Shown here: positions 27,743-56,053 of the stretch, piece after piece
Numbering within the stretch: position 1 is the first letter of the stretch
Layout: each line of letters starts with the position of its first letter
Origin: Planctomycetota bacterium
GTDB taxonomy: Bacteria; Planctomycetota; MHYJ01; WSZJ01
Length of the DNA stretch: 64,000 bases
Direction: 5' to 3'
NCBI GenBank assembly: GCA_009773755.1
Contig: WSZJ01000097.1
Location: 1-64,000 of the forward strand
The notes under the pieces: model-generated
The model's database searches: none
Seen by the model: only the letters and a program-made list of their open reading frames with translations
What the model was told of the DNA's origin: nothing
Program-made: the position numbers and the translations under genes

Positions 27743-27892
27743 CGACCCTGAGAACGTGAGCAACGGTCGCCCGGAGGCGTGCGGCGTCGGCCCGTCCGGC
27801 GCGCCTCGATAGCCCCGGTTCCTCAACTACGCCTCGCGCGCGCGCCGGATGGGCTGACGTCGCGCGCCGCAGGGCGATTGTTGCTTACGTTC

Positions 27893-29356
27893 TCAGTGCC
27901 CGGAGGCGGACTTCAGCTCCGAAGCCACTTTCTGAAGCGTCTGCTTGGCGTCGCCGAAGACCATCATGGTGCGGGGGTGGACGAAGAGTTCGTTCTCGAT
28001 GCCGGCGAACCCGGGGTTCATGGAGCGCTTGAGGACGATGACGGCCTTGGACTGTTCGCAGTTGAAGACGGGCATGCCGAAGATCGGGCTGCCGGGGGAA
28101 GTCTTGGCGGCCGGGTTGACGACGTCGTTTGCGCCGACGACGAGGACGACGTCGGTGTTCACGAAGTCGTCGTTGATCTGGTCGAGGTCGTAGAGCTGGT
28201 CGTAGGGGACGTTGGCCTCCGCGAGGAGGACGTTCATGTGGCCGGGCATGCGGCCTGCGACGGGGTGGATGGCGTAGCGGACGCGGGCGCCGTTTTTCTC
28301 GAGGAGCGACGCGATTTCGCGGACGGCGTGCTGGGCCTGGGCGACGGCCATGCCGTAGCCGGGGACGACGATGAGCGAGCCCGCGTTCTTGAGCAGCTCG
28401 GACGCGTCCTCGACGGACGCTTCGTTCACGTTCGCGGCCTTGCCGCCCGTGGCCGATTTCGCGGGACCGGCGTCGCTTCCGAAGGCGCCGAAAAGCACGT
28501 TGGCGAACGAGCGGTTCATCGCCTTGCTCATGACCATGGCGAGGATGAAGCCGGAGCCGCCGTCGAGGGCGCCGCAGATGATGAGGACTTTGTTGTCGAG
28601 CGCGAACCCGGAGGCTGATGCGGCGAGCCCGGCGTATGAGTTGAGCAGGCAGATGACGACCGGCATGTCGGCCCCGCCGATCGGCAGCACCAGAAGCACT
28701 CCGAGGACGAACGCTACGCCGAGCGTGATGTAGAAAACCGTGTCTGCGACGCCGATCGAAATCGAGGCCGGCCGCGCGACGAGGAAGACGACCATCGCGG
28801 CCGCGGAGAGCAGCGCGACGAAAGTGATCGCGTTCTGCATCGGAAACACCGTCGGCTTGCCGGGCAGGAACCCCTGCAGCTTCCCGAACGCCATCAGCGA
28901 CCCCGTGAACGTGATCGCGCCCATCAGCACCTCGAACCCGACCGCGCCCATGTGGAAGCGGTCCACTTCTCCGTGCGCCGCGAACCCGCTCTCGTGGATG
29001 TAGTAAATGACCCCGACCAGCGCGACGGCGAGCCCGCCGAACGCGTGGGACAGCGCGATCCGCTCCGGCATCTTCGTCATCGGGATCTTGAGGCCCATCG
29101 GAACGCCGATGATCGAGCCGAGCAGGATCCCCCCGGCGATCCACTCGTAGCTCAGCCCCTGCACGACGAGTGTTCCCGCGACCGCCAGCAGCATCCCCAG
29201 CGCCGCCATCGTGTTGCCGCGGCGCGCCCGATCGGGGTGCGTCAGGCTGACGATGCCATAAATGAAGAGGAAGCTCGCGGCGAGATACGCCGCTGCCGTG
29301 ACGAGTTGCCGCCCCTCGATCGAGGCCGATGCCGCAGCGAGGAGAACAGGCGTCAC
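27893..29356 (-). CDS. pntB: NAD(P) transhydrogenase subunit beta
   Basis: IVPGYGMAVAQAQHAVREIASLL...IHPVAGRMPGHMNVLLAEA...NPGFAGIENELF. Confidence 0.9.
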   Translation of the reverse strand: MTPVLLAAASASIEGRQLVTAAAYLAASFLFIYGIVSLTHPDRARRGNTMAALGMLLAVAGTLVVQGLSYEWIAGGILLGSIIGVPMGLKIPMTKMPERIALSHAFGGLAVALVGVIYYIHESGFAAHGEVDRFHMGAVGFEVLMGAITFTGSLMAFGKLQGFLPGKPTVFPMQNAITFVALLSAAAMVVFLVARPASISIGVADTVFYITLGVAFVLGVLLVLPIGGADMPVVICLLNSYAGLAASASGFALDNKVLIICGALDGGSGFILAMVMSKAMNRSFANVLFGAFGSDAGPAKSATGGKAANVNEASVEDASELLKNAGSLIVVPGYGMAVAQAQHAVREIASLLEKNGARVRYAIHPVAGRMPGHMNVLLAEANVPYDQLYDLDQINDDFVNTDVVLVVGANDVVNPAAKTSPGSPIFGMPVFNCEQSKAVIVLKRSMNPGFAGIENELFVHPRTMMVFGDAKQTLQKVASELKSASGH

Positions 29357-32680: not shown

Positions 32681-32707
32681 TAAGGCGTCCGTGTGAAGTC
32701 TGGCAGC

Positions 32708-32817
32708 TCGCGATGGGAGGGCAGGGAGTAGTCGGTAGGGGGTAGGGGGTAGAAAGGACTGCCTTCACCGAGGAGTTCCTACCTCCTACCCACTACCCCC
32801 TACTCACTGCCGTCCCA
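32708..32817. repeat. intergenic palindrome built of GGTAGTG-like units (copy 2)
   Basis: gggagtagtcggtagggggtagggggtag...cctacctcctacccactaccccctactcactgcc. Confidence 0.75.
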
Positions 32818-32850
32818 TTGCGAACCGCCCGGGCTGAATCGGAACCTCAC

Positions 32851-36530: not shown

Positions 36531-36710
36531 GGGGGGGAAGAGCTTACGCCGGTGAGGGGGCCGTCGCAAGGCCGAAGGCGGAATCGGCTGAGTGAACAGA
36601 AAGGCAAAGGCCCTGCCTCAGAGGGCCTGGCGCGGCACGGCCGCAACCAAGGGCATGCGGATGCCGCGCCATCGGGAGAAGGCATGCTGCAGAGACCGAC
36701 CCGCACTTAA

Positions 36711-36776
36711 CGGCAACCACAGAGGACACAGAGAAAATAGACTTTGCTGTTCTCTGTGTCCTCTGTGGTTGCCGTT
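36711..36776. repeat. CACAGAG-type intergenic palindrome
   Basis: caaccacagaggacacagagaa...ttctctgtgtcctctgtggttg: 22-nt arms. Confidence 0.85.
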
Positions 36777-36870
36777 GAATTCGGACCGATAGCCGTTGCA
36801 TATCATTTCCCGAAAATGCGGCGACCGCGCGTGTCTGGTTGCGGCTCGGCCGCGCTGAGTGCTCTGTGGC

Positions 36871-41779: not shown

Positions 41780-41925
41780 CTGCGGGAAACTGCAACTCTC
41801 AACTTTCAACTTCCAAGCAAACGAAGAACTTCAACTGTCAACTTCAAGGATCCCCGACGCCCAGGTCCTTGAAGTTGTCGTCTTGTAGTTCTCCCGTTGC
41901 TTGGAACTTGAAAGTTGAAGTTTTC
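41780..41925. repeat. TTCAACT-type intergenic palindrome
   Basis: CTTTCAACTTCCAAGCAA ... TTGCTTGGAACTTGAAAG plus internal AACTTCAACTGTCAACTTC units. Confidence 0.75.
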
Positions 41926-41945
41926 CGTTTTCCGGCGCAGGGGCT

Positions 41946-47490: not shown

Positions 47491-47561
47491 GGGACTGTAG
47501 CTCAACAGCAGACCGCCCGGCTGTGGCCCGGGAGACGTCGGTGCAACCCCGACCGGTCCCT
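47491..47561 (+). tRNA. tRNA-His(GTG)
   Basis: Cloverleaf: GGGACTG/CGGTCCC acceptor; CCCGG-CTGTGGC-CCGGG; D-loop AACAGCA (A18); T-loop TGCAACC (G55). Confidence 0.85.
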
Positions 47562-47713
47562 TGCAGGAGATGAGTCATGCCAGCAGACGGAAGCGCCCGT
47601 TGCGGTCAATCGACGCAGCGCGAAGGGATCTTTGATAACCGGCGGATCTTCCCGAACCGGCTCCCGGTTCCATGTCACCCTGTTCCCAACTCGGGAATCG
47701 GGGGCCGGTTTTT

Positions 47714-47832
47714 CTCTGAGTGGGAATGAGGCTTCGCGGGTCAGGCTGCGTCGGCCCGCTGACGGCCATCGAAGTGTTTTCATCATGCAGGCCGACTCCG
47801 CCCGACCCACGAAGCCTCATTCACACTCAGAG
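47714..47832 (+). repeat. array spacer hairpin 1
   Basis: CTCTGAGTGGGAATGAGGCTTCGCGGGTC (47714-47742) vs GACCCACGAAGCCTCATTCACACTCAGAG (47804-47832), 27/29 paired. Confidence 0.9.
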
Positions 47833-47870
47833 AAATGTACCCCCATCAGTGGCACTCCTACTTTCTTCGC

Positions 47871-47943
47871 CGGGGTTTCGTCTAACGGCTGAGGACGGCT
47901 CCCCCCTCAAGGAGCAAATGGCGGTTCAACTCCCCCAACCCCA
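47871..47943 (+). tRNA. degenerate tRNA, anticodon ambiguous (8-nt loop CCCCTCAA; Glu(CTC)-like body)
   Basis: GGGGTT/AACCCC acceptor, GCTCC-CCCCTCAA-GGAGC anticodon arm, T-arm with one mismatch. Confidence 0.6.
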
Positions 47944-47962
47944 ATCCATGCAACGACGACTC

Positions 47963-48032
47963 TGGGGCGTCGGCTAACGGTAGGCTGCGAGCCTTTGGAA
48001 CTCGCCGTGGACGTTCGAGTCGTCCCGCCCCA
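47963..48032 (+). tRNA. tRNA-Gln(TTG)
   Basis: TGGGGCG/CGCCCCA; CGAGC-CTTTGGA-ACTCG (C31:A39 mismatch); T-loop TTCGAGT. Confidence 0.85.
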
Positions 48033-48041
48033 ATTTCTCCC

Positions 48042-48114
48042 GTGTCTGTAGCTCAACCAGAAGAGCCCCAGTCTCCGAAGCTGGAGGTTGCAGGTGCGAC
48101 TCCTGCCGGACACA
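48042..48114 (+). tRNA. tRNA-Arg(CCG)
   Basis: GTGTCTG/CGGACAC; CCAGT-CTCCGAA-GCTGG; D-loop AACCAGAA (A18); T-loop TGCGACT (G55). Confidence 0.9.
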
Positions 48115-48218
48115 TCACCGGCCCGGGCAACAATGGCCCTCCCCCGACGTCCGCCCCTCCCCCCTCAACGGCGACGCGCCCGGGCCGGTTCTTTTCCCTG
48201 TCGCTGTTGCCGTTCGGG

Positions 48219-48304
48219 GGATTTGAGGTGGGAGGGTCTTGTTTTGCGGGGCGAGGCGGCCGTTCGTCTCGCGCGGCAAAACAAGACCTTCCCACCTCAA
48301 ATCC
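48219..48304 (+). repeat. array spacer hairpin 2
   Basis: GGATTTGAGGTGGGAGGGTCTTGTTTTGC vs GCAAAACAAGACCTTCCCACCTCAAATCC: 29-nt arms, one G:T wobble. Confidence 0.92.
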
Positions 48305-48305
48305 C

Positions 48306-48376
48306 TGCGGGATGGATCAGTAGCTGATCGGCGGTCTCATAAGCCGCACAGAAGGGTGCGATTCCCTTTCCCGCTA
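48306..48376 (+). tRNA. tRNA-Met(CAT), initiator-like
   Basis: TGCGGGA/TCCCGCT with T1:T72 mismatch; D-stem GATC/GATC (A11:T24); GCGGT-CTCATAA-GCCGC; T-loop TGCGATT (G55). Confidence 0.88.
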
Positions 48377-48377
48377 T

Positions 48378-48471
48378 CGCCGGAGTGAGCCGGTCGGATT
48401 TCGCGAGGCGAGACGAACGGCCGCCTCGCCTCCCGCCTCGCCTCGCGAAACCCGACCGGCTCACTCCGGCG
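48378..48471 (+). repeat. array spacer hairpin 3
   Basis: CGCCGGAGTGAGCCGGTCGGATTTCGCGAGGCGAG (48378-48412) vs CTCGCCTCGCGAAACCCGACCGGCTCACTCCGGCG (48437-48471), 34/35 paired. Confidence 0.92.
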
Positions 48472-48488
48472 AGGAAAGGACATCTGCC

Positions 48489-48562
48489 GCGCGGATGCCA
48501 GAGAGGCTCAATGGCTCGGTCCGCAAAACCGAAGTGCAGTGGTTCGAATCCACTTCCGCGCT
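48489..48562 (+). tRNA. tRNA-Cys(GCA), C33
   Basis: GCGCGGA/TCCGCGC, T73; TCGGT-CCGCAAA-ACCGA; T-loop TTCGAAT. Confidence 0.88.
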
Positions 48563-48571
48563 TTCCTTTCT

Positions 48572-48643
48572 CGCGTCGTGGCGCAGTGGCTGCGCGCCTG
48601 GCCTGGAACCAGGAACAGGAAGGTTCGATCCCTTCCGACGCGA
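48572..48643 (+). tRNA. tRNA-Pro(TGG), C33
   Basis: CGCGTCG/CGACGCG; CCTGG-CCTGGAA-CCAGG; T-loop TTCGATC. Confidence 0.88.
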
Positions 48644-48713
48644 TTCGCATCCGGCTCCGCGAGCCGCGGCGCGGGCGCGGCGCGCGCGCCTCGCTACGCC
48701 GGACGCGAATCGC
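48640..48713 (+). repeat. array spacer hairpin 4
   Basis: GCGATTCGCATCCGGC vs GCCGGACGCGAATCGC (one A:C mismatch); 5' arm overlaps tRNA-Pro 3' end. Confidence 0.85.
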
Positions 48714-48736
48714 CGAACTGCAAGAACGTCACCCAT

Positions 48737-48810
48737 GGGGGCGTCGTCCAGCGGCTTAAGACACCGCCCTGTCACGGCGGAGACCACGGGTTCGAATCCC
48801 GTCGCCCTCG
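48737..48810 (+). tRNA. tRNA-Asp(GTC)
   Basis: GGGGGCG/CGCCCTC; CCGCC-CTGTCAC-GGCGG; T-loop TTCGAAT. Confidence 0.93.
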
Positions 48811-48908
48811 TACCGCATGCGGCTCCGCGAGGCTTGGCGCCGCACGCCGCCCCGAAAATCCGGGGCGGGCGCGGCGCGCAAGCCTCGCTCCGCCGCACGC
48901 GGTACGAG
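48807..48908 (+). repeat. array spacer hairpin 5
   Basis: CTCGTACCGCATGCGGCtcCGCGAGGCTTG... vs ...CAAGCCTCGctCCGCCGCACGCGGTACGAG; nested CCGCCCCGaaaatCCGGGGCGG. Confidence 0.88.
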
Positions 48909-48927
48909 TGCAAAACACCGATCGAAG

Positions 48928-49000
48928 AGGGGTGTGGGCTAACCGGTAAGTCACCTCCCTGTTAAGGAGGTTGATCCAGGTTCGAATCCTGGTGCCCCTG
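48928..49000 (+). tRNA. tRNA-Asn(GTT)
   Basis: AGGGGTG/TGCCCCT; CCTCC-CTGTTAA-GGAGG; T-loop TTCGAAT. Confidence 0.93.
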
Positions 49001-49006
49001 TTCACC

Positions 49007-49095
49007 GGAAGGTTGGCAGAGCCCGGCTTATCGCACCTGTCTCGAAAACAGGAGCCCCCGCGAGGGGGACGAAGGTTCGAATCCTTCACCTTCCT
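49007..49095 (+). tRNA. tRNA-Ser(CGA), class II
   Basis: GGAAGGT/ACCTTCC; CCTGT-CTCGAAA-ACAGG; long variable arm GCCCCCGCGAGGGGG. Confidence 0.93.
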
Positions 49096-49099
49096 TGCC

Positions 49100-49203
49100 G
49101 CGTGCATCGAGTCGCGCGGGCCACGCTGCGCCCTTCACGCCTTCGATTGTCCAAGGTTGTTCTTCTGCCGGGCTCCGCGCGGCCCACACGACTCGATGCG
49201 CGC
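49100..49203 (+). repeat. array spacer hairpin 6
   Basis: GCGTGCATCGAGTCG vs CGACTCGATGCGCGC (one wobble); core GGGCTCCGCGCGGCCC. Confidence 0.85.
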
Positions 49204-49240
49204 AGCAACCAACAGCCACGCAAACATGACGGAAATCCAG

Positions 49241-49332
49241 GGGGAGGTGGCTGAGCGGTTGAAAGCACCTCATTGCTAACGAGGCGGGCCGCCGCTATGG
49301 CGGCCCCGGGGGTTCGAATCCCCCTCTCCCCT
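49241..49332 (+). tRNA. tRNA-Ser(GCT), class II
   Basis: GGGGAGG/TCTCCCC; CCTC(A)-TTGCTAA-(C)GAGG; long variable arm GGGCCGCCGCTATGGCGGCCC. Confidence 0.93.
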
Positions 49333-49360
49333 TCTTCTCGTTCAAGTGAGGGTCTTACTG

Positions 49361-49462
49361 CGAATGCGCGTTCGAGGTCGCGCGGAGCCGGTTAAACCTT
49401 CCTCATCTCCCTTACCTCGGCATCAAGGCGCAGCGCGTCCGCCGACTTCGAACGCGTATTCG
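49361..49462 (+). repeat. array spacer hairpin 7
   Basis: CGAATGCGCGTTCGAGGTCG vs CGACTTCGAACGCGTATTCG, two differences both G:T wobbles. Confidence 0.85.
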
Positions 49463-49533
49463 GGAGTGTGGCCCAACGGGAAGGCACCTGCTCCGCAAGC
49501 AGGGGAATGAGGGTTCAAATCCCTCCACTTCCA
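49462..49533 (+). tRNA. tRNA-Ala(CGC), C33
   Basis: GGGAGTG/CACTTCC with G3:T70 and A73; CCTGC-TCCGCAA-GCAGG; T-loop TTCAAAT. Confidence 0.85.
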
Positions 49534-49538
49534 TTCAG

Positions 49539-49609
49539 AGAGGCGTCGTCCAAGAGCAGGACTCCGGTTTCCAAGTCCGGCGATGAGGGTGCGATTCCTT
49601 CCGCCTCTG
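49539..49609 (+). tRNA. tRNA-Trp(CCA)
   Basis: AGAGGCG/CGCCTCT, G73; CCGGT-TTCCAAG-TCCGG; D-loop AAGAGCA (A18); T-loop TGCGATT (G55). Confidence 0.88.
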
Positions 49610-49623
49610 TACGAATTCTCTCC

Positions 49624-49694
49624 GGGCGTGTCGGCTAGAGGCAGGCCTTCAGGTTCTCAGCCTGACAGCGAGGGTTCGATTCCCTCCACGCCTA
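49624..49694 (+). tRNA. tRNA-Glu(CTC)
   Basis: GGGCGTG/CACGCCT; TCAGG-TTCTCAG-CCTGA; T-loop TTCGATT. Confidence 0.9.
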
Positions 49695-49699
49695 CTCGG

Positions 49700-49770
49700 A
49701 GGGGGGTCGGGTAACGGTAACCCCCGAGCCTCTGACACTCGTTCTGCTGGTTCGAATCCAGCCCCCCCTA
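49700..49770 (+). tRNA. tRNA-Gln(CTG)
   Basis: AGGGGGG/CCCCCCT; CGAGC-CTCTGAC-ACTCG (C31:A39 mismatch); T-loop TTCGAAT. Confidence 0.88.
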
Positions 49771-49774
49771 TCTC

Positions 49775-49846
49775 AGGGTCGTCGCTTAATGGCCGAGCTC
49801 CTGCCTCTTAAGCAGGCCTATGTGGGTTCGAGTCCCACCGACCCTA
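49775..49846 (+). tRNA. tRNA-Lys(CTT)
   Basis: AGGGTCG/CGACCCT; CCTGC-CTCTTAA-GCAGG. Confidence 0.93.
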
Positions 49847-49852
49847 TTCCAC

Positions 49853-49925
49853 GGGTGCGTCGCTCAGTGGTCGAGCTCCGGTTTTTTAAACCGGCCCAGG
49901 ACGGGTTCGAATCCCTCCGCTCCCA
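49853..49925 (+). tRNA. tRNA-Lys(TTT)
   Basis: GGGTGCG/CGCTCCC (T4:T69 mismatch); CCGGT-TTTTTAA-ACCGG; T-stem weak. Confidence 0.8.
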
Positions 49926-50017
49926 TTCGACTCGCCCCGTGCGAGGCGCTTCACGCCTCCCTCGGGGCTCGCTCATGGCGGAGCCCACACCGAACACAGG
50001 CTCAAGCGGGTCGAATG
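49924..50017 (+). repeat. array spacer hairpin 8
   Basis: CATTCGACTCGC vs GCGGGTCGAATG (one wobble); internal GGGCTC...GCGGAGCCC. Confidence 0.75.
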
Positions 50018-50064
50018 CCCTGAGCGAGTGCCGGCGCGAAGCGCCGGACAGGAGTCGAAGGGCT
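50018..50064. repeat. REP-like palindrome (GCCCTGAGCGAG...GAGTCGAAGGGC)
   Basis: CCCTGAGCGAGTGCCGGCGCGAAGCGCCGGACAGGAGTCGAAGGGC. Confidence 0.7.
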
Positions 50065-50097
50065 CGTCGCTCATGGCTCAGCGTTCATCCGCATCGC

Positions 50098-50168
50098 GGG
50101 CGCGTCGGCTAGTGGCAGGCACCCAGGCCTTCAACCTGACAGCGCGGGTTCGATTCCCGCCGCGCCTA
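50098..50168 (+). tRNA. tRNA-Glu(TTC), C33
   Basis: GGGCGCG/CGCGCCT; CCAGG-CCTTCAA-CCTGA; T-loop TTCGATT. Confidence 0.88.
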
Positions 50169-50184
50169 TCCCGGCTGTTTTCCG

Positions 50185-50299
50185 CTTGATTCGCGCGGTG
50201 AGTTGCGCGGTCGCGCGCAGCCCGGTCCGGCCTGAAGCCGCTGAATCACGAGAACCTCAAGGGCGGAGCACGACCGCGCAACTCACCGCGCGAATCAAG
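50185..50299 (+). repeat. array spacer hairpin 9
   Basis: CTTGATTCGCGCGGTGAGTTGCGCGGTCGCGC vs GCACGACCGCGCAACTCACCGCGCGAATCAAG, 31/32 paired; ends at tRNA-Phe. Confidence 0.93.
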
Positions 50300-50371
50300 G
50301 TGAAGTAGCTCAGAGGGTCTGAGCGCCTGGCTGAAGACCAGGACGTGGTGGTTCGATCCCACCCTTCACCA
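50299..50371 (+). tRNA. tRNA-Phe(GAA)
   Basis: GGTGAAG/CTTCACC; CCTGG-CTGAAGA-CCAGG. Confidence 0.95.
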
Positions 50372-50376
50372 TCCAC

Positions 50377-50447
50377 ACGGGCGTCGTCCAACGGAAGGAC
50401 ACGAGATTACGAATCTCGGAATGAGGGTTCGATCCCTTCCGCCCGTA
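50377..50447 (+). tRNA. tRNA-Arg(ACG)
   Basis: ACGGGCG/CGCCCGT; CGAGA-TTACGAA-TCTCG. Confidence 0.93.
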
Positions 50448-50453
50448 TTTCAC

Positions 50454-50525
50454 GGAGGCGTGGCCGAGAAGAAAGGCGCCCGTTTCCTAAACGGGCCGAC
50501 GCAGGTGCGATCCCTGCCGTCTCCA
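50454..50525 (+). tRNA. tRNA-Arg(CCT)
   Basis: GGAGGCG/CGTCTCC; CCCGT-TTCCTAA-ACGGG; D-loop GAGAAGAAA (A18); T-loop TGCGATC (G55). Confidence 0.9.
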
Positions 50526-50549
50526 CTGCAGTTTTCTGGTGGCTGTTCT

Positions 50550-50719
50550 CTGAATTCGCGCGACGGGTCGCGTGGGTCGCGCGGAGCCCGGTACAAGGGA
50601 AAGCCTCACCATCATCACCACCGCCAGGGCGGAGCGGGAGGCCGGTACAAGGGAAAGCCTCACCATCATCACCACCGCCAGGGCGGAGCGCGACCCGCCG
50701 ACCCGTCGCGCGAATTCAG
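50550..50719 (+). repeat. array spacer hairpin 10 with internal 49-nt direct duplication
   Basis: CTGAATTCGCGCGACGGGTCG vs CGACCCGTCGCGCGAATTCAG; CCGGTACAAGGGAAAGCCTCACCATCATCACCACCGCCAGGGCGGAGCG at 50588-50636 and 50642-50690. Confidence 0.93.
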
Positions 50720-50802
50720 GGTGTGTACGAAATCGGATAATCGAGCTGGCCGTAACCCAGCAGCCCTCGCGGGCTCAGCAGGTTCGACTCCTGCCGCACC
50801 CA
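50719..50802 (+). tRNA. tRNA-Tyr(GTA), class II, C33
   Basis: GGGTGTG/CGCACCC; GCTGG-CCGTAAC-CCAGC; variable arm AGCCCTCGCGGGCT. Confidence 0.9.
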
Positions 50803-50806
50803 TCAC

Positions 50807-50879
50807 GCTCTCGTGGCCGAGGGGATCAGGCGCCTGCCTTCCAAGCAGGCCCACGCGGGTTCGAATCCCGCCGGGGGCT
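50807..50879 (+). tRNA. tRNA-Gly(TCC)
   Basis: GCTCTCG/CGGGGGC; CCTGC-CTTCCAA-GCAGG. Confidence 0.9.
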
Positions 50880-50891
50880 CTCAAACTCAAT

Positions 50892-50963
50892 GCGGCTGTG
50901 GCTCAGCGGTCGAGCGCCACCTTGCCATGGTGGTTTACGCGGGTTCGAACCCCGCCAGTCGCT
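50892..50963 (+). tRNA. tRNA-Gly(GCC)
   Basis: GCGGCTG/CAGTCGC; CCACC-TTGCCAT-GGTGG. Confidence 0.93.
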
Positions 50964-50965
50964 TC

Positions 50966-51041
50966 CGGGATGTGGTGAAGCCTGGCTCATCACGCCTCGT
51001 TCGGGACGAGGAGATCGCTGGTTCAAATCCAGCCATCCCGA
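50966..51041 (+). tRNA. tRNA-Pro(CGG)
   Basis: CGGGATG/CATCCCG; CCTCG-TTCGGGA-CGAGG. Confidence 0.95.
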
Positions 51042-51044
51042 CTT

Positions 51045-51117
51045 GCTCGCGTAGCCCAACGGCAGAGGCACCAGTCTCAGAAGCTGGTCAGTGGAGGTTC
51101 GAATCCTCCCCCGAGCA
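51045..51117 (+). tRNA. tRNA-Leu(CAG), short (class I) variable loop
   Basis: GCTCGCG/CCCGAGC (one mismatch); CCAGT-CTCAGAA-GCTGG; variable loop TCAGT. Confidence 0.85.
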
Positions 51118-51120
51118 TCC

Positions 51121-51191
51121 GGTCCTCTAGTTCAACGGCAGAACTCCGGTCTCACATACCGGTGACGGAGGTTCAACTCCTCCCGGGACCA
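51121..51191 (+). tRNA. tRNA-Val(CAC)
   Basis: GGTCCTC/CGGGACC; CCGGT-CTCACAT-ACCGG; T-loop TTCAACT. Confidence 0.88.
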
Positions 51192-51193
51192 TT

Positions 51194-51265
51194 GCTCTCG
51201 TGGCTCATCGGCTGAGCACCAGCCCGACATGCTGGGCAAGGCAGGTTCGACTCCTGCCGGGAGCA
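51194..51265 (+). tRNA. tRNA-Val(GAC), C33
   Basis: GCTCTCG/CGGGAGC; CCAGC-CCGACAT-GCTGG. Confidence 0.9.
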
Positions 51266-51269
51266 TCTC

Positions 51270-51340
51270 GCCTCTCTGGTTTAACGGCAGAACGCCTGCT
51301 TCCCAGGCAGGAGAAGAGGGATCGTCCCCCTCGAGAGGCT
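51270..51340 (+). tRNA. tRNA-Gly(CCC) with variant T-loop
   Basis: GCCTCTC/GAGAGGC; CCTGC-TTCCCAG-GCAGG; T-arm GAGGG-ATCGTCC-CCCTC. Confidence 0.85.
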
Positions 51341-51342
51341 TG

Positions 51343-51413
51343 GCGCCTGTAGCTCAACGGCAGAGCCGTCGGTCGATAACCGGCAGATGCAGGTTCGAAT
51401 CCTGACGGGCGCA
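51343..51413 (+). tRNA. tRNA-Ile(GAT), C33
   Basis: GCGCCTG/CGGGCGC; GTCGG-TCGATAA-CCGGC. Confidence 0.88.
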
Positions 51414-51425
51414 TCTGTTGTTCGC

Positions 51426-51470
51426 TCGGCGTTGAGCCCTTCGATACCTCAGGGTGGCCGAGCGAAGTGG
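51426..51470. repeat. REP-like palindrome
   Basis: TTCGCTCGGCGTTGAGCCCTTCGATACCTCAGGGTGGCCGAGCGAA. Confidence 0.7.
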
Positions 51471-51478
51471 GTCGTACG

Positions 51479-51549
51479 GCTCTTGTAGCTCAAAGGAGAG
51501 CACCTGCCTCGTAAGCAGGAGGGTGTGGGTTCGATTCCCATCGGGAGCT
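51479..51549 (+). tRNA. tRNA-Thr(CGT)
   Basis: GCTCTTG/CGGGAGC; CCTGC-CTCGTAA-GCAGG. Confidence 0.93.
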
Positions 51550-51553
51550 TCAG

Positions 51554-51626
51554 GCCCTCGTAGCCCAACGGCAGAGGCAGCCGCTTCAAAACCGGCGAAG
51601 TGCAGGTTCGAATCCTGCGGGGGGCA
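51554..51626 (+). tRNA. tRNA-Leu(CAA), short variable loop
   Basis: GCCCTCG/GGGGGGC (one mismatch); GCCGC-TTCAAAA-CCGGC; variable loop GAAGT. Confidence 0.82.
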
Positions 51627-51653
51627 TGAACGGAAGATCCGCCGAAAGTGATC

Positions 51654-51727
51654 GCCCTCGTAGCCCAACGGGCAGAGGCGCATGGTCGAGAGCCATGCTG
51701 GTGCTGGTTCGAATCCAGCCGGGGGCA
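51654..51727 (+). tRNA. tRNA-Leu(GAG), short variable loop, C33
   Basis: GCCCTCG/CGGGGGC; CATGG-TCGAGAG-CCATG; variable loop CTGGT. Confidence 0.88.
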
Positions 51728-51797
51728 CTTTGCATGAAATCCGAGCTTTCGGTTATCTCCGGCGGAAAGCGATGCATCCGCCATCGCAGGCGCCTTC

Positions 51798-55636: not shown

Positions 55637-56053
55637 TACACGGAGTTCACGGAGACCACAGAGGTCACAGAGAAAAGTGCGTGGCTCATCCGGGAACTCA
55701 TTGGATCGCCCCACGCAGGAATCTCGAACGGCTTCCTGTCTGTATTCGCTTTTATTCTCCTTCATTCGCGACCCGTCTTTGTTTCTCAGTTCCACCGCTT
55801 GCAATCTGCGAAAAACAAAGACGGGTCGCGAATAAAAGAGAATGAAAGAGAATAGAACTGACGACCCGAATCCCGCGACCCACAGAAAGCCCGGAACGAC
55901 CCTTCTTTTTTCTCTGTTCTACTAACCGTCACATTCTTCGAGTGACGCCAAGAATTTCACGGCGTCAATCCCTACAACGGCATGTCTTTGCGCTGAGCGA
56001 GCGGAGCGAGTCGAAGGGCTCTGTGACCTCCGTGCTCTCCGTGAACTCCGTGT
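55637..56053. repeat. composite intergenic inverted-repeat element (CACGGAG-type flanks with nested 20-bp perfect hairpin)
   Basis: ACACGGAGTTCACGGAGACCACAGAGGTCACAGAG vs CTCTGTGACCTCCGTGCTCTCCGTGAACTCCGTGT; nested TTCGCGACCCGTCTTTGTTT (55765-55784) / AAACAAAGACGGGTCGCGAA (55813-55832). Confidence 0.85.

What the first reader, a model, noticed from the sequence alone, without database searches (positions are those of the whole stretch)
47714..50719. Long hairpins fill the array spacers: arms differ between copies, base-pairing is kept
Seen: ten spacers contain inverted repeats with arms of about 12-35 nt (47714, 48219, 48378, 48640, 48807, 49100, 49361, 49924, 50185, 50550). Arms are unrelated in sequence between copies but nearly perfectly self-complementary, with differences often G:T or A:C. 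Hairpins 4-10 share a CGGAGCC-type box near the apex (GGCTCCGCG, GCGCGGAGCC, GCGGAGCCCGGT...GGGCGGAGCGCGAC). Hairpins 2 and 3 share GAGACGAACGGCCGCCTCGCC in opposite orientations. Some arms overlap the 3' or 5' ends of flanking tRNAs. Inference: either a structured-RNA/mobile family inserted between tRNAs, or processing/insulator elements of a long precursor.
Basis: partly seen in the sequence, partly recalled or inferred. Interest (0 to 1): 0.85.

Follow-up and report, generated by a model that had tools for sequence, protein, structure and literature searches.

The report
Mobile-looking DNA hairpins between tRNA genes
The long hairpins in the gaps of this planctomycete tRNA cluster are real, but they are copies of species-variable, probably mobile hairpin elements found throughout these genomes rather than parts of the tRNA machinery; their two arms change together, and they tolerate G:T mispairs mainly on their own strand, whichever way they lie next to the tRNAs.

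Summary
Ten array spacers contain long hairpins; all nine folded ones beat every shuffle (z -3.5 to -14). Similar inverted repeats occur across the genome: 52 in 387 kb against 1 in shuffled sequence, and 44 of 45 outside the array are intergenic. Four congeners carry the same tRNA array with hairpins in largely different spacers, and most empty spacers are 0-15 nt, so hairpins come and go. Several array hairpins share a GCGGAGC bubble core and belong to one polar superfamily with a GCCGTTTTCC-like tail and a head that abuts a tRNA end or, in some copies, a stop codon. The outer stem covaries strongly. G:T mispairs exceed A:C on the element's own strand (62:15, p=6e-8), and on the tRNA strand the bias reverses with orientation. 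That argues against a tRNA-processing role. Related hairpins flank an IS1182-family transposase gene. REP/RAYT, integron attC, intrinsic-terminator and Rfam membership were tested and not met. Best reading: a genus-restricted, non-autonomous hairpin element family that functions folded on one strand, with arms probably also homogenised by template switching. Mobilisation by the IS1182 transposase is inferred, not shown.

The parts
47491..51728 (+). array of 32 tRNA genes that hosts the hairpins
   Evidence: ARAGORN, Rfam tRNA; same array in four congeners
47711..47835 (-). hairpin 1, family F1; the element (GGA) strand is the minus strand
   Evidence: inverted repeat 88% complementary; R2 model 111 bits on the minus strand; z -12.4
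48218..48305 (.). hairpin 2, no GGA core; orthologous hairpin at the same junction in G002
   Evidence: z -14.1
48377..48472 (.). hairpin 3, no clear core; shares an inner segment with hairpin 2 in inverse orientation; directly after tRNA-Met
   Evidence: (I4, I5); z -13.4
48640..48713 (-). hairpin 4, TCC orientation; stem pairing runs 5 bases into the 3' end of tRNA-Pro
   Evidence: weak R1 match on the minus strand, 26 bits; z -3.5
48804..48911 (-). hairpin 5, TCC orientation; stem pairing runs 5 bases into the 3' end of tRNA-Asp
   Evidence: z -9.9; the R1 match is weak (24 bits) and on the plus strand, so the orientation rests on the box and the geometry
49095..49208 (-). hairpin 6, family F2; head directly after tRNA-Ser(cga)
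   Evidence: R1 model 100 bits on the minus strand (the model was built with this copy)
49361..49462 (+). hairpin 7, family F2; head at the 5' end of tRNA-Ala
   Evidence: R1 model 82 bits on the plus strand (a training copy)
49922..50061 (.). hairpin 8, composite structure of another family; similar sequence in own contig C17 and in G002
   Evidence: (73% over 170 nt); z -4.8
50185..50299 (+). hairpin 9, family F2; head at the 5' end of tRNA-Phe
   Evidence: R1 model 98 bits on the plus strand (a training copy); z -10.0
50550..50719 (+). hairpin 10, family F2 with an internal 54-bp tandem duplication; head at the 5' end of tRNA-Tyr
   Evidence: R1 model 85 bits, not a training copy; duplication (D4)
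27748..27896 (.). hairpin of type F4, outside the array; the same type lies beyond transposase remnants from F1 hairpins in other loci

Best explanation
The hairpins are copies of a superfamily of short (about 90-150 nt), non-autonomous, mobile hairpin elements that settle in intergenic DNA, including directly against tRNA gene ends. Each has a polar layout on its own ('GGA') strand: a GCCGTTTTCC-like tail, a variable outer stem, a conserved inner stem with a GGA bubble, a 30-50 nt loop, and a head end. SHOWN: the array hairpins are present or absent at the same spacer in different species; F1 copies occur in four of five species of one genus; F1-like hairpins, heads outward, flank an intact IS1182-family transposase gene; the stem covaries; G:T is preferred over A:C on the element's own strand whichever way it lies. 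INFERRED: what is kept is a folded form of that one strand (single-stranded DNA during transposition, or an RNA of the element), and the elements were spread in trans by the IS1182-like transposase. ALSO INFERRED: replication template switching between the arms helps keep them complementary and extends some stems a few bases into tRNA 3' ends. Hairpins 2, 3 and 8 share the architecture but were not shown to share the core.
For: Presence/absence at orthologous spacers. Genome-wide members, intergenic. Covariation score 0.575 against 0.17 shuffled and at most 0.11 slid. Wobble on element strand 62 G:T to 15 A:C, reversing on the tRNA strand with orientation: 29:8 and 7:33; F1 arms 46:17. Head gap median -1 nt, tail gap median 29.5 nt. 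Hairpins against dispersed tRNAs on own contigs C281 and C59 and on G003:C206. IS1182-family transposase, 357 bits with cut-off 270, with F1-type hairpins on both sides in G002:C42. Pairing into tRNA 3' ends above permutation, p=2e-4.
Against: No strain-level insertion, target-site duplication or transposition event was seen. Transposase copies in the own genome are fragments. DDE transposases are not known to me to need a folded single strand, so the one-strand signal and the IS1182 link do not sit together easily. Copies are related, so p-values are too small. F2 copies are almost confined to tRNA arrays, which could also mean local copying.
Confidence: 0.6

Rival explanations
1. Pure mutational origin: the hairpins are ordinary intergenic quasi-palindromes. 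Replication template switching alone creates them and keeps their arms complementary, with no mobile element and no selection on structure.
For: Double changes far outnumber single ones in own-genome F1 copies (283 to 40), 42% of them transversions. Stem pairing extends into tRNA 3' ends, and one F1 stem overlaps a predicted gene by 19 nt. Template switching is known to create and repair hairpins (PMC8794818). Many hairpins in this genome are built of simple repeats.
Against: It predicts no G:T over A:C asymmetry tied to element orientation, no shared core, loop and tail in dozens of unlinked copies, and no hairpins flanking an IS.
Confidence: 0.15
2. Functional RNA of the tRNA operon: the hairpins are processing, stabilising or insulating elements of the polycistronic tRNA precursor.
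For: Very stable folds, strong covariation, position directly at tRNA ends.
Against: Half of them show the wobble bias of the non-transcribed strand. Spacers that carry them differ between species and may be 0-5 nt long. The same family lies next to protein genes and an IS. Some stems would pair with the acceptor end of the tRNA itself. No hairpin was picked up as a terminator-like site with a T-run.
Confidence: 0.08
3. Single-strand recombination site: the element works like an integron attC site or a REP, recognised as a folded strand by a tyrosine recombinase or HUH enzyme rather than by the IS1182 transposase.
For: Strand-specific folding, a polar layout, variable arms around a conserved bubble, and an unpaired base on the GGA strand in several copies (sequences) resemble attC as described in PMC3053210.
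Against: No attC boxes at the hairpin base (0/38); no integron integrase above cut-off; no Y1 transposase match in five species of the genus; no GTAG tag (0/38) and CGTC in only 4/38.
Confidence: 0.15

Closest known systems
REP / REPIN elements (GTAG- and CGTC-tagged palindromes; PMC3733652)
   Same: High-copy intergenic palindromes with one polar end, probably moved in trans
   Different: REPs are 20-40 bp with tags; these are about 90-150 nt, untagged, with covarying stems, and the genus has no Y1/RAYT match
MITEs derived from IS elements (here IS1182 family)
   Same: Short, non-autonomous, resemble the ends of an IS with its transposase
   Different: In an ordinary MITE the terminal repeats keep their sequence; here the outer arms vary while pairing is kept
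Integron attC sites (PMC3053210)
   Same: Imperfect hairpin, structure kept more than sequence, one strand is the active one
   Different: No R boxes, no integron integrase, no gene cassettes
Rickettsia palindromic elements
   Same: Genome-wide palindromic insertions (from memory; RPE-4 and RPE-6 are named as CGTC repeats in PMC3733652)
   Different: Known, from memory, for in-frame insertion in genes; nearly all copies here are intergenic
Template-switch hairpins (PMC8794818)
   Same: Multi-base compensatory changes and stem extension
   Different: Here the hairpins also share a core, a tail and a strand bias

Membership tests
REP/REPIN | GTAG or CGTC tag at the foot of the hairpin | tested here: not met
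   GTAG 0 of 38, CGTC 4 of 38 array hairpins
REP/REPIN | Associated Y1 (RAYT) transposase | tested here: not met
   PF01797 has no match in five species of the genus, which are 81-89% complete
REP/REPIN | Size 20-40 bp | tested here: not met
   about 74-170 nt in the window
Integron attC | RYYYAAC and GTTRRRY boxes at the hairpin base | tested here: not met
   0 of 38
Integron attC | Integron integrase in the genome | tested here: not met
   TIGR02249: none above cut-off in four species of the genus; only weaker tyrosine-recombinase matches, as in all control genomes
Integron attC | One strand folds and is active | tested here: inconclusive
   Wobble bias on one strand fits; activity not testable
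IS1182-derived MITE | Similarity to the ends of an IS with its transposase | tested here: met
   F1-type hairpins on both sides of an intact IS1182-family ORF (357 bits, cut-off 270) in G002:C42; met for F1, not shown for every array hairpin
IS1182-derived MITE | Target-site duplication at insertions | tested here: inconclusive
   Filled and empty tRNA spacers show no evident duplication, but the empty sites are too short and diverged
IS1182-derived MITE | Mobilised in trans by the IS transposase | not testable with these tools
   needs an experiment
Intrinsic terminator | T-run directly after the stem | tested here: not met
Known Rfam RNA family | Score above the gathering threshold | tested here: not met
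   Only tRNA reaches it
tRNA-precursor processing element | Structure kept on the transcribed strand | tested here: not met
   Head-upstream hairpins have 7 G:T and 33 A:C on the tRNA strand

The most novel reading that the evidence does not exclude
A new kind of mobile element in an uncultured planctomycete genus. The element is recognised as a folded single strand whose stem sequence is nearly free (attC-like logic without an integron), it is probably moved by a DDE transposase of the IS1182 family, and it prefers the ends of tRNA genes as landing sites.
Probability: 0.25. Interest if true: 0.85.

Novelty: new variant of a known kind. Interest (0 to 1): 0.58.

Why it matters
Covariation is usually read as strong evidence of a functional RNA. 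Here covarying hairpins sit inside a tRNA cluster, yet the wobble test indicates that the element's own strand, not the tRNA transcript, carries the constraint. If right, it is a case of structure kept by a mobile element (and probably by template switching) that could mislead RNA-family discovery. Five species with the same tRNA array and different insertions make turnover of such elements directly measurable.

Tried and rejected
tRNA-precursor processing: disfavoured by the wobble direction and by non-conserved positions. REP/RAYT and attC: defining features not met. Terminators: none of the long hairpins. Rfam: only sub-threshold matches, mostly miRNA-type hairpins. Viral origin: the F1 core pattern has no match in viral contigs. 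The taxonomy scan with a window protein returned nothing; the pattern scan gave Planctomycetota MAGs. Protein-gene intergenic regions were too diverged between congeners to define insertion edges. A strict claim that stems always copy the target was dropped: extension is significant at tRNA 3' ends only, and one apparent case (G003 Asp|Asn) pairs with bases that look like tail motif. Two first versions of scripts were superseded: hairpin detection wrongly filtered full palindromes and was redone.
Full report
OBSERVATION. The array (47491-51728, + strand) has 32 tRNA genes and one degenerate tRNA-Glu-like sequence. Most spacers are either a few nucleotides or about 90-190 nt. The long ones hold the reported hairpins. 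Inverted-repeat search finds them at the stated places, and all nine that were folded beat every one of 200 dinucleotide shuffles, z -3.5 to -14.1. The hairpin at about 49924 is among the weaker ones and is composite.

NOT TRNA-SPECIFIC. In 387 kb of the own genome, 52 inverted repeats reach score 28, against 1 in shuffled sequence. Of the 45 outside the array, 44 are intergenic although 82% of the sequence is coding by a rough in-house gene caller. Several are made of simple repeats and form separate families. The array region itself, used as a BLAST query, finds more than 20 places elsewhere that match hairpin 1.

PRESENCE AND ABSENCE. Four species of the same genus carry the array. At one and the same tRNA junction some species have a hairpin and others a bare spacer. 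Met|Cys has 112, 131, 100 and 3 nt; Gly|Pro has 2, 137, 5, 275 and 11 nt. At Met|Cys three species hold three different hairpins. Only a few look orthologous, for example Arg|Met and Ser|Ser between the window and G002. So hairpins are gained and lost quickly.

ONE SUPERFAMILY. Family F1 has the core CGGGCGGAGTCGGCC, a loop of about 30 nt and GGCCGACGCAGCCTG; 43 copies were collected. Family F2, the CGGAGCC-box hairpins of the array, was modelled from 13 copies. The F2 model also finds F1 copies, so the two are related. F1-model hits occur in four of five species of the genus and in none of 19 other genomes of the class; the F2 model behaves likewise, with none in 26 others. Scored candidates per genome were capped, so copy numbers are lower bounds, and many places are listed on both strands. 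G004 has long hairpins in its array but no match to either model, so other families share the architecture. An exact-pattern scan of named genomes hit only Planctomycetota MAGs; contig lengths suggest that two of them are congeners G001 and G002.

COVARIATION. In the F2 alignment 95.9% of cells pair and 18 of 27 pairs show changes on both sides. The covariation score is 0.575, against 0.17 in shuffles and at most 0.11 when the partner is slid. In F1 copies of the own genome, pairwise comparison gives 283 double Watson-Crick changes and 40 other changes; 42% of the doubles are transversions, which do not pass through a G:T step.

STRAND TEST. Stems were aligned with a score that treats G:T and A:C alike. 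Orientation was set by geometry alone: the side touching a tRNA is the head. On the tRNA strand, head-downstream hairpins have 29 G:T and 8 A:C; head-upstream hairpins have 7 G:T and 33 A:C. On the element strand this is 62:15 (p=6e-8), and 25:4 by hairpin (p=1e-4). Setting orientation by the core box gives the same picture, and F1 arms genome-wide give 46:17. Both orientations sit in one tRNA cluster read in one direction, so a mutation bias tied to transcription or replication direction would not explain the reversal. The tRNA transcript is therefore unlikely to be what is conserved. The caveat is that related copies are not independent, so the p-values are optimistic.

POLARITY AND LANDING SITES. 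The head lies at a median of -1 nt from a tRNA, the tail at a median of 29.5 nt from the other tRNA (the head/tail split was part of the selection). A T-rich GCCGTTTTCC-like motif marks the tail (GCCGT in 13 of 38). Outside the array, hairpins abut dispersed tRNA genes: own contig C281 (one), own contig C59 (two, tail to tail) and G003:C206 (two). Among 27 F1 copies without the IS-type flank that passed an automatic check, 8 have a gene reading into the head, and in 6 the stop codon ends 1-6 nt inside the hairpin. Stem pairing extends into tRNA 3' ends more than permuted pairings do (1.85 against 0.64 bp, p=2e-4) but not into 5' ends.

LINK TO AN INSERTION SEQUENCE. Some F1 copies are followed on the tail side by remnants of a transposase gene, with another hairpin type (F4, as at window 27748-27896) beyond it. 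In G002:C42 an intact 433-aa ORF scores 357 bits against the IS1182 transposase model (cut-off 270) and has F1-type hairpins, heads outward, on both sides. This fits, but does not prove, that solo hairpins are moved in trans by that transposase.

WHAT IT IS NOT. No Y1/RAYT transposase match in the genus, no GTAG tags and no attC boxes, no integron integrase above cut-off, no terminator-like site at the long hairpins, no Rfam family.

MECHANISM. Shown: polar, covarying hairpin elements with a one-strand wobble bias and high turnover, related to hairpins that flank an IS1182-type transposase gene. Inferred: recognition of the folded strand during transposition. Also inferred: template switching between arms, a process already described for RNA hairpins (PMC8794818), which would explain both the abundance of double changes and the short extensions into tRNA 3' ends. 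Selection on the folded strand, or some equivalent, is needed in addition to explain the wobble bias.

LIMITS. Fragmented, incomplete MAGs; rough gene calls; no strain-level insertion polymorphism; no target-site duplication; hairpins 2, 3 and 8 not assigned to the core superfamily, hairpins 4 and 5 only weakly.

Noticed in passing
47491-51728: The array tRNAs score lower against Rfam's tRNA model (mean 53.4 bits, 32 genes) than the 34 dispersed tRNAs of the same genome (65.1 bits; p=4e-8), which suggests a redundant second tRNA set; tRNA array units elsewhere are discussed as a putative anti-defence trait (abstract of PMC12803027). Scores, comparison.
   Followed up: partly
47579-47710: A possible short ORF directly after tRNA-His; the segment reading GIFDNRRIFPNRLPVP looks conserved in G001 and G004 spacers. 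Read by eye, not tested.
   Followed up: no
47871-47944: A degenerate tRNA-Glu-like sequence missed by ARAGORN (33.9 bits); congeners have a tRNA-Glu(ctc) at this place.
   Followed up: partly
50583-50690: A 54-bp tandem duplication (98%) of the loop and right box inside hairpin 10 (D4).
   Followed up: no
36615-36870, 41783-41934, 32702-32829, 55743-55854: Other long inverted repeats in the window, several built of simple repeats such as CACAGAGGACACAGAG, AACTTTCAACTT and GGGGGTAG, with relatives elsewhere in the genome.
   Followed up: partly
L024 (G002 array), Trp|Gln spacer: A second copy of the 3' half of tRNA-Trp follows the hairpin, as if a tandem tRNA copy had been interrupted (read by eye).
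   Followed up: no
L070 (own contig C301), 12590-12732: An F1 hairpin whose stem is about 16 bp longer than usual and overlaps the 3' end of a predicted gene by 19 nt, with an inverted copy next to the tail; a candidate template-switch product.
   Followed up: partly
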